Of a stretch of DNA of 64,000 nt, positions 26,066 to 45,985 are shown piece by piece (position 1 is the first letter of the stretch; the number at the start of each line of letters is the position of its first letter). Source of the stretch: Hyperoplus lanceolatus (Eukaryota > Chordata > Actinopteri > Uranoscopiformes > Ammodytidae); contig CM049396.1 in assembly GCA_026929865.2 (NCBI GenBank), positions 23,579,001-23,643,000 of the forward strand, written 5' to 3'. Below the pieces are notes generated by a model. The model made no database searches, was not told the origin of the DNA, and saw only the letters and a list, made by a program, of their open reading frames with translations. Position numbers and translations under genes: made by a program.

Positions 26066-26400
26066 GTGAGTTATAAGTAAGTAAGTAAGTACAATGTTTT
26101 TATAAAAGCACAATTATAACAGTTTCCACTGTCCAAAGTGCTTTACATAGTGCATTCAGTAGGTAAAAAATTAAGGTAAAATAACAATAACCAAAATAAA
26201 ATACATAAAACCCAGACATCCACATATGAACACAGATAGTAGTGCAGAGGTAAGATAGTTAATGGGGAGGAAAAAACAGGGTGTACAGATGGGTTTCGAG
26301 CCATGATTTAAAGGCAGAAATGGAGAGGGAATTGCATATGCCAGGTGGCAGTTGGTTCTACAAGGGCGGAGCAGCTAGTGCAAAGTACATTTCTGAGAGT
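26066..26400 (-). repeat. LINE 3' fragment, antisense
   Basis: It opens with gtaagtaagtaagtac, continues with gtccaaagtgctttacata and then cgagccatgatttaaagg. This is the reverse of fish LINE endings that close ...tgtaaagcgctttatataaac-(ttac)n. It sits inside the element at 25679-28005 and supplies the first part of a spurious 165-codon open frame. Confidence 0.6.
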
Positions 26401-26404
26401 TGTG

Positions 26405-26563
26405 CCATTGGCATGGCTGTATACGCTGGTCACCAAAAGAAAGTGATTGTCTACAGTAGCTCAGAAGAGACTGACATCTCAATTCCACTTAACAACACCA
26501 CTGAGGAGAGTTCAGATGGCCAGAAAGATGATGATGGTGACTTTGTCATTATGAGCTTTGCAG
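26405..26563 (+). pseudogene. Transposase C-terminal remnant
   Basis: In frame it reads AVYAGHQKKVIVYSSSEE, then an acidic stretch with DGQKDDDGDFVIMSFA. An acidic linker followed by a GDFVxVxFA-like module resembles the tail of some fish DDE transposases. The frame is broken by the insertion at 26564 and resumes at 27073 as DFVIMSFAGKTT before a stop. Assignment is by resemblance only. Confidence 0.4.
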
Positions 26564-27072
26564 AAAGAACCAAGAGTCAGTTCCAGCTTTTTCATTCAAA
26601 ACTGTTCCAGCCTTATCCCAGTTATGAACCGGTTGGTTTCACATCGCCGGAGACAGCCATGGAGCCACAAGAGAGCAACGTCATGACGCACTGTAACGTG
26701 TTTCTCTTGTGGCTAACGCTAAGCTACGCTTTAAGCACAACAACAGCGGCGAATACGTCTTATTTTTACACGTGTTAGCTCTCGCTTTGCTTTCTTAACC
26801 AACGGGACCCATACAGCGTCCCTCAATTTGATCGCTACGTTCGGTTGTTTACGTCTCGTAGTGCGGTGTTTTTAAACATGGCGGGCATGAGGTTTTAGTT
26901 GGTCTGGTTGGTCAGGATAATCCCTCCCCGGCCGCTGGCGCGCCCCTCATCCTGGGGTATGAGTTGAACCGGTTTACGGCCCGGGCGGCTTTCTGGCGGT
27001 GTGAAACCAAACACTGGCTCACTCCAACTAGCCCAGAACTAGCACCGATTTTGCGGCGGTGTGAAAGGCCTA
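26564..27072. mobile_element. 509-bp insertion flanked by a 16-bp direct repeat
   Basis: The 16-mer attatgagctttgcag occurs at 26548-26563 and again at 27073-27088. The sequence between is CpG-rich and unlike the host. Joining across it restores continuous transposase-like sequence. A 16-bp duplication suits LINE-driven retroposition better than a cut-and-paste element, but there is no A-tail and no obvious SINE promoter. Confidence 0.55.
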
Positions 27073-38489: not shown

Positions 38490-39105
38490 ACACTGTGCAC
38501 ACATGTTGTCCTACAAGAGATTGTTGTTGTAAATAGTTGCTCTAGTTTAACCTGTTCACGTACATTTGTTCGGATATCAAAAGCCACTGTGAGTGTCCTG
38601 ACCTTTGCAGTATTGCAAGTGAACCTTCCAGCCTCAAGCTGTCTCACCCAAACGTATGAGTGTGGCCTGCAGAAGGCTGCTGGGGATGGATTCACTATAT
38701 CAGAAATTTTTTTTTTAGAATACATGGCAATCAGTTAGAGGTCTGACCTTTCTACTGTTTTCTACTGTGTATTGAAGCCTGTGTTTTCAATTTCTTATAG
38801 TGTAATGTGGAATGTGGAATTAAACTACAATACAAATTGTAACATAATAATACATGTTCTGTGTGAATATTTGTTTTGTTGTGCACAGTTAAACAAATGT
38901 AAATCAATCGCGTTATTTGGTTTCATATCCAAAAAGCAGAACCACAATAGTTCACTATACTGTATACACATTTGAGGAGATTTTAAATATGTTCTGATAG
39001 TATATTCCCTAAGTAAGAGTGCAAAGTATAGCACCCAAAATGAGGTGTGGTTTTCAGTGGGAAAACAAGTCCATACTGCAACATTTGAGTGATGGTTCTA
39101 GCAAC
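38490..39105. other. Intron, no recognised features
   Basis: AT-rich unique-looking sequence. Confidence 0.4.
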
Positions 39106-39370
39106 CCTTTCTCATCAAAATTACGTTCCCAGAGGACTATTCGGCATTCTCAATTACGTTTGACCATTTACGTATTTTGTCCGTGATTACGTTTTTATGA
39201 ACATATTCGGCATTCTCAATTACGTTTGACTGAAAAACGTATTTTGTCCGAAATTACGTTTTTATGAACATATCGCAAACAAGTTCGTTCTCAGCCTAGA
39301 GCTGTTCAGGATGCTCAATTACGTTTGGCTACAAAACGTATTGATTACGTTTTAATAAACATATCGCATA
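39106..39370. repeat. Subterminal array of TTACGT words (left copy)
   Basis: TTACGT occurs eight times and the inverse-type aaaacgta twice in 265 bp. The repeating frame is cggcattctcaattacgttt, then acgtattttgtccg, then attacgtttttatgaacata, in three progressively diverged versions. The right arm carries the same array inverted at about 45318-45582. Such reiterated short words at element ends are typical of transposase-binding sites; here that is inference. Confidence 0.8.
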
Positions 39371-39546
39371 CATTCGTTCTCAGCCTATTTTTAGCCATTT
39401 ATTTACCTCTAGGATTATGTTTGGTTGAAGTGTGCATTGTCTGGGCGGCTGCCTGAACTACAGCGCTGCAGGAAATTAATATGTTCCATAGATATGTTCA
39501 CATGTTTCTTCATTCATTCATTCAAACAGGAAATCGACGTTCCGAC

Positions 39547-39640
39547 ATGGCCACGCCCCCTTTGGGTGGAAAACAAAGCGATTTTGACTATAATGCAAAA
39601 AATTGCGGTCCAAAACGGCACAAAAAGAAAACGATCAGAG
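39547..39640 (+). other. Candidate first exon inside the left inverted arm
   Basis: An ATG in good context (G at -3 and +4) at 39547 opens 31 codons, MATPPLGGKQSDFDYNAKNC then GPKRHKKKTIR. The frame ends at cagag before gtaaataag, a credible splice donor. The KRHKKK cluster resembles a nuclear-localisation signal. If real, it would be an N-terminal exon of the parent element's gene duplicated into the inverted repeat. The equivalent region of the right arm is similar but not identical. No family recognised; chance remains a real alternative. Confidence 0.3.
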
Positions 39641-40796
39641 GTAAATAAGTTACAATTTGACCGACAGACACAATGTTAAGATCCTTTACAACTACTCTGC
39701 CAGCTAGATAACGTTAAACTAGACTACGGAACTACACAGGGCTGCAGGGAAAATAGGGTGACGTCAGACGCACGCCCCTCTACAAACCAATCAGTATCGA
39801 GGAATGCTAAACGAGCCTATCGGCAGCCCTGAGCTAAAAAGATTTCTAGCGAGACCTATGTACTTTATTTTCATAATCTTGATATTGCGAATTCATATGA
39901 TCTGTCTGAAGTCTGATAGGCTAATTCTCAAGAAATGTTCGGTACACAAATAGGCTACGTGCCAAGCTGTTGATCAACTGGACACAATCAAAGATAGCAC
40001 ACACACACACAGCTGACAAGAGCGCTCCCTCCCTCCCTCCACCCGCCGCCGAGTTTTTTTTCCCAGAGCAAATTTTTGAAGTCAAGGGTTATCATGGTGA
40101 CACAAATACGTCACACTTCAGCTAGTAAGTGCATAAACATATGTTTTGAAAACATATCTAGCGAGAAATACATCAGAATATCATTATATTCGGTAATTGG
40201 GAGTATCTGATCTCTATTTGGTTAGTTTGCTGACGTATTTACCACCGTTGCTATGTAATCCTACATTTCCCATCATCCTTTTTAGGGCTGGGTGGACCCG
40301 TTCGACTCCTATCAGAGTGTCTGCCGATTCAGGGCGCATTCCATTTACAATTCAGGGCCTCCGCCGTAAAACCACAAGTCAGACATGTTCACACGGCTGA
40401 CACTTCCGTTCTGCCCCATCATAATAAAAAAAACTTAACAGGAAGTAGGTTACATTATTCCCCTCCTCCGAAACGTCCCCGTTTCCACACAGAAACATCA
40501 TAAGGGCCCTTAGGAATAATGGAACCACTTACAGAAACATGCTGCACTACCAAAAAATTAATAAAATAACTTGAATTGAACACATTCTTTATAGGCCTAC
40601 CCTAAACCTTAAAGCATGTAGGCTAGGGAAACTATTTCTGTAAGAAAAATGTGTTTTATAGCCTTTGTGGTTGTATAATTTAAAGTTTCTGATCAAATAT
40701 GTGGCGGATTATACATGAAATTATAAAACAATTAAATGTACAGTTTAAAATTTCATTGAATAGGCTTCTTGAACTTACTAAAGCAGTACTCTACAA

Positions 40797-40798
<2 letters not shown>

Positions 40799-40846
<48 letters not shown>

Positions 40847-40856
40847 TGCGTGTGTC
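40799..40856. repeat. Compound TG / CGTG microsatellite
   Basis: A TG run passes into about six CGTG units and back to TG. CGTG runs are CpG-containing and prone to left-handed DNA. Confidence 0.9.
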
Positions 40857-41560
40857 ACATCTTGTAGCCTACCCTGACAGGGATTTGGTTGTTTTCTTTT
40901 AGTTAATGATATTAAATGTTGCTATAAATTGTGCATAGCCTACACATAATATAAAACTAGGTGCATATTGAATGTGAATCCTGCAACTGAAAGTATTTGG
41001 AAGGAGTAGGCCAGTTACTCAAATGGGAGTAGTTTAAAGATTGCTTTATTCATGATTTTGACCTTAAAAAGGTAGAATTTTAGGCAGTCTTATGAACAGT
41101 GCTTAATCAGTGTTTGCGGTGTGGTGTGGCAGTGTTTATTATTTTCTGCATATGCAGTTGACTCAGTATATTGTCCCCTGTCTTAATGGTAAGTGGTCTT
41201 GACGGCGGTTTGTCCACCACACACTTGGCATGATATACAGGTGAAATTTGAATATCGTGCAAAAGTTCATTTATTTCAGTAATTCAACTTTATAGGTGAA
41301 AATAATATCTTATACAGACTCATTACATACAAAGTGAGATATGTGAAGCCTTTATTTTTTATAATTGTGATTATTATGGCTTACAGTTTATAAAAACCCC
41401 AAATTCAAAATCTCAGAAAATTAGAATATTACATAAAATCAATAAAAAAAGGATTTTAAATACAGAACTGTCGGCCCTCTAGAAAGTATAATCATGCATA
41501 TGTACTAAGTACTTGGTTTGGGCCCCTTTTGCATGAATTATTGCCTAAATATTGCCTCTA

Positions 41561-41697
41561 TATGTTGTGAGTGTATTATTGTGAGTGAACATGTAACTTG
41601 TTGCTGCCTCTTGGCCAGGACTCCCTTGAAAAAGAGGTTTTTAATCTCAATGGGACTTTCCTGGTTAAATAAAGGTTAAAAAAAAAAAAAAAAAAAA
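41561..41697 (+). repeat. LINE 3' tail with poly-A, inserted in the left Tc1 arm
   Basis: The phrase ttggccaggactcccttgaa, then ctttcctggttaaataaagg, then about 20 A is the ending of a common fish non-LTR family. It is the same family as 16735-16860. It is absent from the opposite arm. Confidence 0.7.
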
Positions 41698-42607
41698 GCG
41701 TGGCATGGATGCTATCAGTCTGTGGCACTGCTGAGGTGCTATGGAAGCCCCTGGGTTGCTTTGATGTGGCCTTCAGCTCCTCTGTATCGTTGGGTCTGGT
41801 GTGTATCATCTTCCTCTTGACAATAGTCCATAGTTTCTCTATGGAGTTCAGGTCAGGAGAGTTGTCTGGCCATTCATGCAGAGTAATACCATGGTCAGTC
41901 AACCAGTTACCAGTGGTTTATGGTACCGTGGGCAGGTGCCAAGTCTAGCTGGAAATGGAAATTGTCATCTCCATAAAGCTTGTCAACAGACAGAAGCATG
42001 AAGTGCTCCAAAATCTTCTGGTAGATGGCTGTGGTGACTTTGGACTTGATAACACAGTGGACCAACAGCAGCGGATGACATGATACCTCAAATCATCACT
42101 GATCCAAATTAAATGTTGCGTTTCATTTGGAAATCAAGGTTCCACAGTCTAGAGGAAGAGTGGAGGGGCACAACATCCAAGGGGCTTGAAGACCACTGTC
42201 AAGTTTCAACAGTCAGTGATGATTTGAGGCACCATGTCATCTGATGGTGTTGGTCCACTGTGTTATCAAGTCCAAAGTCACCACCAGCTGTCTACCAGGA
42301 GATTTTAGAGCACTTCATGCTTCTGTCTGTTGACAAGCTTTGTGGAGATGCTGAATTACTTTTTCCAGCAAGACTTGACACCTGTCCACAGTGCCAAAAC
42401 CACAAGTAACTGGTTGACTGACCATGGTATTACAGTGTTGATTGGCCAGACAACTCTCCTGACCTGAACCCAATAGAGAAACTATGGACTATTGTCAAGA
42501 GGAAGATGATACACACCAGACCCAACAATACAGAGGAGCTGAAGGCCACTATCAAAGCAACCTGGGCTTCCATAACACCTCAGCAGTGCCACAGACAGAT
42601 AGCATCC

Positions 42608-42671
42608 TTTGGAAGCGCATTGTGAAGCGCCTTGTGACCCTGGTCTGTGAAGGGCGCTATATAAATAAAAG

Positions 42672-42703
<32 letters not shown>
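42608..42703 (+). repeat. LINE 3' tail with (TTAC)n, inserted in the right Tc1 arm
   Basis: The phrase gaagggcgctatataaataa, then a (ttac)8-9 tail, is flanked by a short catcc duplication. It belongs to a different non-LTR family from the left-arm insertion. Confidence 0.7.
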
Positions 42704-42705
<2 letters not shown>

Positions 42706-43042
42706 TCCATGCCACACCGCATTTAGGCAATAATTTGTGCAAAGGGGGCCCAAACCAAGTACTTAGTACATATGCATGATTATACTTTATAGAGGGCCGA
42801 CATTTTTGTATTTAAAATCCTTTTTTTATTGATTTTATGTAATATTCAAATTTTCTGAGATTTAGAATTTGGGGTTTTCATAAGCTGTAAGCCATAATAA
42901 TCACAATTATAACAAATAAAGGCTTGAAATATCTCACTTTGAATGTAATGAGTCTATATAATATATTAGTTTCACCATTTAGGTTGAATTACTGAAATAA
43001 ATGAACTTTTGCACGATATTCTAATTTTTCGAGTTTCACCTG

Positions 43043-43436
43043 TATTGATAAGAGATTTATTCTTGTTCTTTTCATACGGGCAGCGACATTCCACGTATGT
43101 ATCGCGCTGGACCTGTGGTGTAGCATTGGGCGAGGAAGCCTTGACAGCGCCCTGATTTAATCTGCAAGGTTAAGATCCCTCTATAACAGTTTTTCCAATG
43201 ACTCTAGCCTATTTTGTTCAAACTGCCTTTGTATTTCACATCCCTCAATTAGCACCTGTCACTTTCACATGGGCCTATTTTAAATAAATATTCAGATGAT
43301 TCAGCAGATGCAAGGTGTGTCAGTTCTGTGTGCAGTTCACAGGACAGTTTACAGGGACAGGGAACAGGTGGACAGTAGTGTTCGGGCATGGTAGGAGCTA
43401 CACACCTCTTAAATTTAACCAAGGTTGAGAGATGGA
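43043..43436. other. Core of the 6.5-kb element, no recognised feature
   Basis: Unrecognised sequence between the Tc1 fold-back and the LINE piece. Confidence 0.4.
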
Positions 43437-43439
43437 TAT

Positions 43440-43800
43440 GGATTTTGGGAGGACCAGGAGGACTAGGCTAAATCTCCATTCTGGGAGAAGAGGTTGAGTT
43501 GATGGAGGGCTACAGAAACCTGGGCATTTAATTAAACAACAGACTGCATGAAGGGACAGCGCAGACTCTACTTCATGAGCAAATCCTTATTAACCTGTTA
43601 CTAAGCCCAGTTGGTTGTGGAGAGAATGATAATGCACAAGCTGCTGAAGATGATGGACAGCATCACCTTCAGCTATTTGACCACTACAGAAAGTCATTCC
43701 TGATACAATCCACAATAACTGCTACTACAATGCCACACTTTCCCTATGGCAATAAATAAAGTACATTATCCATCTATAAGTCCATCCATCCATGCAGGTA
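43440..43800 (+). repeat. LINE fragment: reverse transcriptase 3' end and tail
   Basis: In worn frames it reads VVERMIMHKLLKMMDSI-like and later YRKSFL-like sequence. These match the region after the reverse transcriptase of fish non-LTR elements (YRYLG..., ...YRKSFLP...). It ends with aataaataaagtacattatc and a (tccatcca) tail. No intact frame remains. A related piece lies at 61425-61800. Confidence 0.6.
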
Positions 43801-44452
43801 TATTTAAACAACGCCTATGCATATGGGTTCTGTATTATAATCTCTGAAGGACACACCTTTTGGTTTACTATTTCCACAAGAAAACAAATGAGCAAACAAA
43901 AAGCTTAATTTTCCATATTGGGCCTTCAAATTGATCATAAAATCAACCTTGCGGTAAAGAACACCAACTGAATACATTGCTGGAAAGGTGCTAATGTTGA
44001 GAGTGTGAAGATTGTACAATTTTACATTTAAACACACCTACAATTCACCACCATGCTTTTGATTAGATTTAATTTATTTGCACAATAAAAACAACAAAGA
44101 ACATTGGCCACAGAAATATAAAATATAAAACATTTTTTAAAAGGCAACATATTGTGCAGGTGAGATATATATATATAAAAAAGTTGTGAATGATATCTTA
44201 CTTCAAAGATCATTTAATGTAAAATACTGAAGAAAATAGAAGTAATTTAATCCACAAGGTTATACAGAGGTAAAAAGACAAGCAAAGTGGGTATATGGTT
44301 GTAGTTGTCCTGCTTATTTAACTGTAAAGGCCGCCTACAACTCCTTATTCGTGATAACCATCAAACTACATCGTGCACATTTACTGAGTGACGATTGTGT
44401 TGCATTTCTCACAAACAACAATGATCATCTCACAACGATTTATGCTCTTCGT
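43801..44452. other. Core of the 6.5-kb element, no recognised feature
   Basis: AT-rich sequence leading to the right arm. Nothing was recognised. Confidence 0.4.
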
Positions 44453-45589
44453 AGCTCAGGGCTGCCGCTATAGGCTCGTTTCGCGTCACGTGACATTCCT
44501 CGACATTGATTGGTTTGTAGAGGGGCGTGCGTCTGACGTCACCCTTCCTCAGGTCGGCAATACGTCATCTAGACAGAACTCTCGTGGCAGTACTCAAAGA
44601 CAGCGCGATCATTCAAAATAAGCGTTATAGCTCAAATCTGCAATGTCCTGAGCTGTTTTGTGGTTTACAAAGTAAAAAACAAACATCATGGTTTTATTCC
44701 TTTGCCATGCCCCCAAAAATTCCCCTAAAGAAGGGCTGTATGACAGCAGGAAGCTCCCGGCTGCGCTCTGCATTCAGTGGGAGTTTGCTATCGTAACGAA
44801 CAATTAGTTCACGTGTAATCAGCTTACATAGAGACTCAGTGAGGTGAATATATACATCAGGGCATGATATCTCTGGCCAATGGGTCGGATCATTGCGCCA
44901 GATTGATGCTGAGAGACTAGACACACATAGTTTTAGATTGATCAAATTAATCATTTAACGTTATCTAGCTGGCAGAGTTGTTGTAAAGGATCTTAACATT
45001 GTGTCTGTCGGTTAAATTTTAACTTATTTATCTCTGATCGTTTTCTTTTTGTGCTGTTTTGGACCGCAATTTTGCATTATAGTCAAAATCGCTTTGTTTT
45101 CCACCCAAAGGGGGCGTGGCCATGTCGGAACGTTGATTGCCTTCACCAGTTTGTTTGAATGAATGAATGAATGAATGAAGAAACATGTGAACATATCTAT
45201 GGAACATATTAATTTCCTGCAGCGCTGTAGTTCAGGCAGCCGACCAGACAATGCACACTTCAACCAAACATAAGCCTAGAGGTAAATAAATGGCAAAAAA
45301 TAGGCTGAGAACGAATGTATGCGATATGTTTATTAAAACGTAATCAATACGTTTTGTAGCCAAACGTAATTGAGCATCCTGAACAGCTCTAGGCTGAGAA
45401 CGAACTTGTTTGCGATATGTTCATAAAAACGTAATTTCGGACAAAATACGTTTTTCAGTCAAACGTAATTGAGAATGCCGAATATGTTCATAAAAACGTA
45501 ATCACGGACAAAATACGTAAATGGTCAAACGTAATTGAGAATGCCGAATAGTCCTCTGGGAACGTAATTTTGATGAGAAAGGTTGTTTT

Positions 45590-45985
45590 TGGAGTTGTGT
45601 TTTCTTTTTTTTAAAAAAAAAAAAAATTAAAGAACCTTTTTTTTGTGGTAGTAGTTTTTTTTTTTATTAAAAGGATTTTTTTTTGGGGGGGTGTTTAAAA
45701 TTTTTTGTTTAATATACATGTTTTTTTTGTGTGTGTTTTGTTTGAGGGGAAGAATTTGTGTTTGTTGAAGTTTAAACCCGTAACGAAAAAAAAAAAGAAG
45801 GAGTTGTGGCCGGCACCAACAAAAAAATTAGACAAAAGCCACCACTAAAATAAGAAAAGGAAAGAGGAAAGGGAGGTAAAGAAAACTTGGAGTTTTTTAA
45901 AAAAAATACACCACAAAAAATGAGAACCCCCAAAAAGGGGGGAGGATATGACTTTTCCCCCCCCCCCCCAAAGCCCCAAGAATGT
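45590..45985. other. Homopolymer-inflated stretch, suspected low-quality assembly
   Basis: Runs of 7-14 identical bases (T, A, G and C) occur every few bases here, including 13-14 C at about 45957-45970. This density is unlike anything else in the window. It begins within 10 bp of the right end of the 6.5-kb inverted repeat. The sequence looks like single-pass long-read error rather than biology. Confidence 0.6.

What the first reader, a model, noticed from the sequence alone, without database searches (positions are those of the whole stretch)
39106..45582. Unclassified 6.5-kb inverted-repeat element with an ACGT-word array at each end
The arms are 743 and 1,130 bp long and nearly identical in their outer 500 bp. 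The outer 260 bp hold about ten ACGT cores (mostly attacgttt) in three tandem sub-repeats, strikingly CpG-rich for a fish intron. Inner arm sequence has TGACGTCA and CCAAT words. The termini cctttctcatcaaaattacg do not match any superfamily I know, and no 2-, 3-, 4- or 8-bp duplication is evident. This is the best candidate for something undescribed in the window.
Basis: partly seen in the sequence, partly recalled or inferred. Interest (0 to 1): 0.8.

Follow-up and report, generated by a model that had tools for sequence, protein, structure and literature searches.

The report
Young long-armed DNA transposon in fish
This is one of many nearly identical copies of a large DNA transposon that appears to have spread recently through a fish genome; no transposase of its own was recognised, and its repeat arms contain the broken start of a gene from a different transposon.

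Summary
The inverted repeat is real, but the right flank beside it (45583-45962) looks like faulty assembly, so the window alone misleads about the ends. Other copies in the same genome resolve this. All 18 copies tested have a target-site duplication: 14 of 7 bp, 4 of 8 bp. The exact 24-base terminus occurs 70+69 times genome-wide, control 0. Fifteen copies differ by a median of 0.3% (sampled through perfect matches, so biased towards young copies).

The arms are composite. The outer ~420 bp holds three tandem units with ten ACGT cores. Inside it lies the 5' end, with a broken first coding exon, of a YqaJ gene of the kind found in ISL2EU-type transposons of this genome. A Tc1-like palindrome, whole or partly deleted, is in all 20 long copies fetched, so it is older than the burst.

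No transposase of its own was recognised, so it is probably moved in trans. Duplication length and long repetitive arms best fit the P superfamily (Galileo-like). ISL2EU fails on duplication and terminus. The mobilising enzyme was not found, and Repbase and other fish genomes could not be searched.

The parts
39095..39101 (.). Predicted left copy of the target-site duplication (7-bp form); its right partner is lost in the faulty flank
   Evidence: Inference from the position of the terminus in 18 other copies; not verifiable in the window
39102..39524 (+). Left outer arm: terminus CAACCCTTTCTC plus the ACGT array (three tandem units within 39138-39392) and a spacer; not found in the ISL2EU-type loci
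39525..39842 (+). Left inner arm: sequence like the non-coding leader of a YqaJ gene (39529-39581 matches L118 at 81%), with the exon region absent, then a block with TGACGTCA and CCAAT words
39843..41243 (.). Left interior, no recognised coding
41244..43027 (.). Nested palindromic Tc1-like element with outward-facing DDE_3 remnants; present, whole or partly deleted, in all 20 long copies fetched
43028..44445 (.). Right interior, no recognised coding
44446..44545 (-). Right inner block with TGACGTCA and CCAAT words, 83% like 39755-39842
44816..45144 (-). Start of a YqaJ gene (leader and first coding exon, with stops) homologous to L118/L119
45160..45585 (-). Right outer arm: ACGT array and terminus; reads GGTTG at the end where the other copies tested read GGGTTG
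45583..45962 (.). Faulty-looking homopolymer-rich flank, not part of the element except at its first bases

Best explanation
A non-autonomous, recently amplified cut-and-paste DNA transposon family with long composite terminal inverted repeats. SHOWN: one unit, most often 6.4-6.6 kb, with CAACCC...GGGTTG ends, 7- or 8-bp duplications, 139 exact termini, low divergence in the sample, no recognised transposase of its own, the 5' end of a YqaJ gene in the inner arms, and a Tc1-like palindrome acquired before the burst. INFERRED: a transposase supplied by another element binds the ACGT array near each terminus, pairs the ends, excises the element and inserts it with a 7- or 8-bp staggered cut. The enzyme is probably of the P superfamily (Galileo-like). 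The inner arms grew when one arm captured the 5' end of an ISL2EU-type element and the extended arm was copied to the other end.
For: TSDs in 18 of 18 copies tested, 14 of 7 bp and 4 of 8 bp. 70+69 exact termini, control 0+0; 111+104 with up to 3 mismatches, control 0+0. 46 pairs among the 100 listed places. 15 copies differ by 0.1-2.0%, median 0.3%. No other Pfam domain above its cut-off in the window copy; the extra DNA of four long copies holds nothing (L100, L102) or only reverse transcriptase (L103, L092). Array identical between arms while the next part has 10 substitutions in 324 positions. Galileo has 7- or 8-bp duplications and arms that recruit tandem repeats, coding pieces and other transposons (PMC4168063, passages). 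P-type transposase domains exist in this genome (19 matches).
Against: No P transposase was found inside a copy: none of the 16 of 19 matches that can be checked lies in a listed pair, though the list shows 100 of 139 exact termini and no mismatched ones. The best P locus (L141, 7 kb) has no arm similarity. The duplication lengths and arm build are shared by unrelated enzymes in principle. Binding of the array was not tested.
Confidence: 0.55

Rival explanations
1. It is an ISL2EU element (PHIS superfamily) with unusually long arms, moved by the DDE_Tnp_4 transposase of relatives such as L118.
For: The arms carry the 5' end of a YqaJ gene homologous to L118/L119, where YqaJ is convergent with DDE_Tnp_4.
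Against: ISL2EU makes an AT duplication and its arms usually begin GG, up to 259 bp long (PMC4482050, section 5). Here duplications are 7-8 bp, the end is CAACCC, and the outer ~420 bp is not found at L118, L119 or the 2.2 kb upstream.
Confidence: 0.07
2. It is moved by a transposase of another or undescribed superfamily with 7-8-bp duplications, not P.
For: No enzyme identified; the P assignment rests on duplication length and build only.
Against: Dada lacks terminal inverted repeats (PMC3706591 passages); Kolobok ends begin RR (PMC9587614 passages); hAT makes about 8 bp (passage) whereas 14 of 18 here are 7 bp.
Confidence: 0.35
3. The palindrome is an assembly artefact or a local inverted duplication.
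For: The right flank looks faulty; inverted duplications lower nanopore base-calling accuracy (PMC7229812, abstract in the listing).
Against: The same unit stands at many sites with duplications, and the two arms differ.
Confidence: 0.01
4. The array is mainly a promoter or enhancer of the captured YqaJ start, not a transposase-binding site.
For: It lies upstream of the gene start in the right arm and is CpG-rich.
Against: The gene start is broken and missing from the left arm, yet the array is identical in both arms. Not decisive: both roles can coexist.
Confidence: 0.15

Closest known systems
Galileo (P superfamily, Drosophila)
   Same: Long, internally repetitive inverted arms; 7- or 8-bp duplications; arms that recruit tandem repeats, coding pieces and other transposons; many non-autonomous copies (PMC4168063 passages; PMC3573991 abstract in the listing)
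   Different: Host is a fish; the recruited gene piece is from a YqaJ gene, not its own transposase; no P transposase found in a copy; terminal sequences not compared
ISL2EU (PHIS superfamily)
   Same: The inner arm is homologous to the 5' end of the YqaJ gene at ISL2EU-type loci of this genome
   Different: 7-8-bp instead of AT duplication; CAACCC instead of GG start; arms longer than the 259-bp maximum in PMC4482050; no DDE_Tnp_4 in the element
Zebrafish P element Pdre2
   Same: Fish host; target duplication of similar length (8 bp)
   Different: 13-bp terminal repeats beginning CATACC (PMC10983969 passages); no long arms
Foldback element Tetris (D. virilis)
   Same: Listed as a foldback transposon with long terminal inverted repeats (PMC4079207, title and abstract in the listing only)
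   Different: Not compared at sequence level

Membership tests
P superfamily (Galileo-like) | 7- or 8-bp target-site duplication | tested here: met
   14 of 18 are 7 bp, 4 of 18 are 8 bp; rule from PMC4168063 passages
P superfamily (Galileo-like) | P-type (THAP/RNase H-like) transposase in an autonomous member with the same ends | tested here: inconclusive
   19 PF21788 matches in the genome; 16 checkable, none inside a listed pair; list incomplete; L141 without arm similarity
P superfamily (Galileo-like) | Long internally repetitive arms (trait of Galileo, not of all P elements) | tested here: met
P superfamily (Galileo-like) | Terminal sequence homologous to known P-superfamily ends | not tested
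   Only the printed Pdre2 end was seen; it begins CATACC, here CAACCC
ISL2EU | AT target duplication | tested here: not met
   7-8 bp in 18 of 18 copies tested
ISL2EU | Arms usually begin GG | tested here: not met
   CAACCC
ISL2EU | DDE/THAP transposase and YqaJ genes | tested here: not met
   Only a broken YqaJ start in the window copy; no DDE_Tnp_4 or THAP match in six-frame scans
Kolobok | Ends begin RR (TTAA duplication recalled, from no call) | tested here: not met
   Ends begin CA; duplications are 7-8 bp; rule
Dada | 6-7-bp duplication and no terminal inverted repeats | tested here: not met
   Long terminal inverted repeats here; rule
hAT | About 8-bp duplication | tested here: not met
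   Only 4 of 18 are 8 bp; hAT transposase not searched

The most novel reading that the evidence does not exclude
A vertebrate lineage of Galileo-like transposons, or a still undescribed superfamily with 7-8-bp duplications, whose transposase recognises an ACGT array. It enlarged its arms by capturing the start of another transposon's exonuclease gene, and it moved until very recently or still moves.
Probability: 0.3. Interest if true: 0.6.

Novelty: new variant of a known kind. Interest (0 to 1): 0.48.

Why it matters
Long-armed, array-ended DNA transposons of this build are described from Drosophila (Galileo), where copies have caused chromosomal inversions (PMC2775673, title and abstract in the listing). 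A young family with tens of 6.5-kb copies in a fish would be a natural system for asking how inverted arms grow, how another transposon's gene start becomes part of an end, and whether such copies rearrange chromosomes or spoil assemblies. It also shows why a single copy beside a faulty flank looked as if it had no target duplication.

Tried and rejected
Rejected: (1) My first reading of an exon 1 (MATPPLGG...) spliced to an exon at 44909. In L118 the same stretch has no start codon and lies upstream of the first coding exon, and a search with the spliced peptide found no candidate. (2) ISL2EU membership, suspected from the YqaJ fragment: fails on duplication, terminus and coding content. (3) Assembly palindrome: refuted by the copies. 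(4) Matching the faulty right flank to the left flank after homopolymer compression: scores 36 and 27 against a background 95% point of 40, no signal; the simpler shuffle control had looked significant (1 and 0 of 200). (5) The P transposase locus C10:6567423 (L141) as partner: only simple-sequence and chance-level matches to the element within its 7 kb; a longer element is not excluded.

Led nowhere: array patterns in viral contigs and genome contigs, 0 hits. The YqaJ alignment in viral contigs gave 80 loci, not studied further; in genome contigs no relative was confirmed. The exon searched alone gave no protein at E<=0.01. Rfam at gathering threshold gave no match in the window. NCBIfam, PHROGs, PADLOC, structure prediction and fold search were not used.

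Biases: the probe held the window's own exon letters. As a control, a profile from the 33 N-termini without a tblastn hit at the exon still ranks 44697-44954 first of 2,221 pieces (16.2 bits, E 0.0014; next 5.5 bits). 68 of the 120 listed proteins entered the profile. In one search, 30 of 32 hits at E<=0.01 fall at the exon and 2 (both from P0026) elsewhere in the window. L089-L108 were chosen from perfect array matches, so the low divergence and array conservation are biased; the arm-to-arm comparison inside the window is not. Of 20 long copies, 18 were scored for duplication; L098 (damaged right end) and L103 (second end outside the fetched stretch) were dropped.
Full report
OBSERVATION. The inverted repeat stands as described. 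Arms 39106-39718 and 44954-45582 are 95% alike over 631 columns, and an inner block at 39755-39842 / 44446-44545 is 83% alike. The outer 287 bp are identical; the next 324 compared positions hold 10 substitutions and 20 gap columns (Fisher p 0.002 on substitutions). The outer array holds ten ACGT cores per arm, against 2.2-2.3 in shuffles, and CpG observed/expected of about 2, against 0.46 for the window. It is built of three tandem units with three cores each, the middle core of opposite sense in the second and third units. Units within an arm differ (60 of 62, 48 of 56 and 74 of 85 aligned bases alike, with 41, 44 and 19 gap columns), yet the arms are identical unit by unit.

WHY THE WINDOW MISLEADS. 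The stretch 45583-45962, right against the right arm, is the most homopolymeric in the window: 46% of bases in runs of four or more, against a median of 9%. Copy L098 shows similar damage at its right end. Long inverted duplications are reported to reduce nanopore base-calling accuracy (PMC7229812, abstract in the listing); which technology was used here is unknown, so this is only a plausible cause.

COPIES. The genome holding the window (806.7 Mb, 527 contigs) answered after many busy replies. The 265-bp array had 218 candidates; the 40 scored were all 100% identical. Twenty long stretches were fetched, and all hold the same element, some with insertions or deletions. The terminus is CAACCCTTTCTC...GAGAAAGGGTTG. 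Eighteen have both ends readable and all 18 have a target duplication: 14 of 7 bp, 4 of 8 bp; 13 of the 18 are 6.41-6.56 kb long and the rest 5.6-7.7 kb. The exact 24-base terminus occurs at 70 forward and 69 reverse places, against 0 and 0 for the reversed control, and at 111 and 104 places with up to 3 mismatches, control again 0. Of the 100 places listed, 92 form 46 +/- pairs, 34 of them 6.4-6.6 kb long, and 8 are single. Two of the singles are this window's copy and L098, with damaged right ends, and one is the last of the cut-off list. Pairwise divergence among 15 copies (window, L089-L102) is 0.1-2.0%, median 0.3%; by region the mean is 0.00-0.38% outside the Tc1 part and 2.31% in it. 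These copies were picked through perfect array matches, so the whole family may be older and more varied than this sample.

CONTENT. The Tc1-like palindrome 41244-43027 has DDE_3 remnants facing outward on both sides and TA at its edges. It is present, whole or partly deleted, in all 20 long copies, so it entered before the burst. Its central 0.9 kb is inverted relative to the window in L090, L097 and L102 of the 14 copies tested and in L105, which accounts for part of the higher divergence there. Six-frame Pfam scans of the inner arms and interior of the window copy gave nothing above a curated cut-off. The extra DNA of the longer copies L103 and L092 contains reverse transcriptase, that of L100 and L102 no match; these are later insertions. 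The 8.7- and 12.1-kb pairs were not read.

THE CAPTURED GENE START. Of 120 listed database proteins with YqaJ/SWIM features, 38 hit the right inner arm by tblastn at E<=0.05, best E 2e-7. A profile of 68 N-termini finds it alone in the window at 23.4 bits (E 7e-6), against at most 9.7 bits in 20 shuffled sets. The genome's own YqaJ loci (68 matches) include L118 and L119, which match the arm over 352 columns at 65% (E 3e-13) and the exon at 58% of 45 residues (E 1e-14). L118 with L140 has a YqaJ domain and, convergent to it, DDE_Tnp_4, the gene pair that PMC4482050 and PMC9179366 give for ISL2EU (passages; section 5 of the former). No THAP domain was seen there and the right end was not found, so I call them ISL2EU-type. 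L118 and L119 become alike only from L118 position 114, close to where the match to the arm begins, and the outer ~420 bp of the arms has no match at L118, L119 or the 2.2 kb upstream of L118. So the arm is two pieces: an outer part from an unknown source and the 5' end of an ISL2EU-type element inside it. The first coding exon in the window is broken by stops (tblastn alignment of P0010), and the left arm lacks it.

MECHANISM. Shown: one mobile unit, its ends, its duplications, its youth in the sample, and the composite arm. Inferred: movement in trans, since no transposase of its own was recognised; the array as transposase-binding subterminal repeats, since it is repeated, shared exactly by both ends and the least changed part between the arms; and arm growth by capture and copying. 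The last has a precedent in Galileo, where tandem repeats, coding pieces and other transposons were recruited into arms and whose duplications are 7 or 8 bp (PMC4168063 passages). P-type transposase domains are present in this genome (19 matches). None of the 16 that can be checked lies inside a listed pair (the list covers C1 to part of C15), and L141, around the best one, has no arm similarity. The P assignment therefore rests on duplication length and build, not on the enzyme.

OPEN POINTS. The array could also act as promoter or enhancer; nothing here separates the two. Of CpG columns, 0 of 18 differ between arms in the array and 2 of 12 in the next part, too few to tell youth from low methylation.

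NOVELTY. Repbase, Dfam and other fish genomes were out of reach. Literature searches on long inverted repeats, foldback, YqaJ, ISL2EU, palindromic Tc1 and P superfamily listed no paper recognisable from title or abstract start as describing this element; the lists were capped, so this is weak evidence. I rate it a new variant of a known kind: a long-armed DNA transposon, probably P-like, in a fish, with arms that include part of another transposon.

Noticed in passing
window 41244-43027 and copies L090, L097, L102, L105: The nested Tc1-like element is itself a palindrome made of two inverted transposase 3' ends, and its centre is flipped in some copies, as if palindrome arms recombine.
   Followed up: partly
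window 45583-45962; L098 right end: Homopolymer-rich, faulty-looking sequence directly beside the right end of a long-armed copy in two of the copies seen; such elements may damage assemblies systematically.
   Followed up: partly
L118, L119, L140 (own genome C9 and C1): Two ISL2EU-type copies 98.9% alike over 3.1 kb; beyond the DDE_Tnp_4 part L140 has long ORFs that I took by eye for a DIRS-like retroelement (not tested).
   Followed up: no
own genome C10:6567423-6567785 and C7:1556020-1556385: P-superfamily transposase domains in open frames of 495 and 615 aa (the second match with one TAG), which could be domesticated or mobile genes.
   Followed up: partly
window 26263-26778: A 171-aa open frame without a Pfam match at E<=0.1 and without a phage relative.
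   Followed up: partly
own genome C13:14210292-14214101, C5:21146267-21158333, C14:7641510-7650179: Pairs of exact termini with unusual spacing (3.8, 12.1 and 8.7 kb) that may hold different interiors.
   Followed up: no
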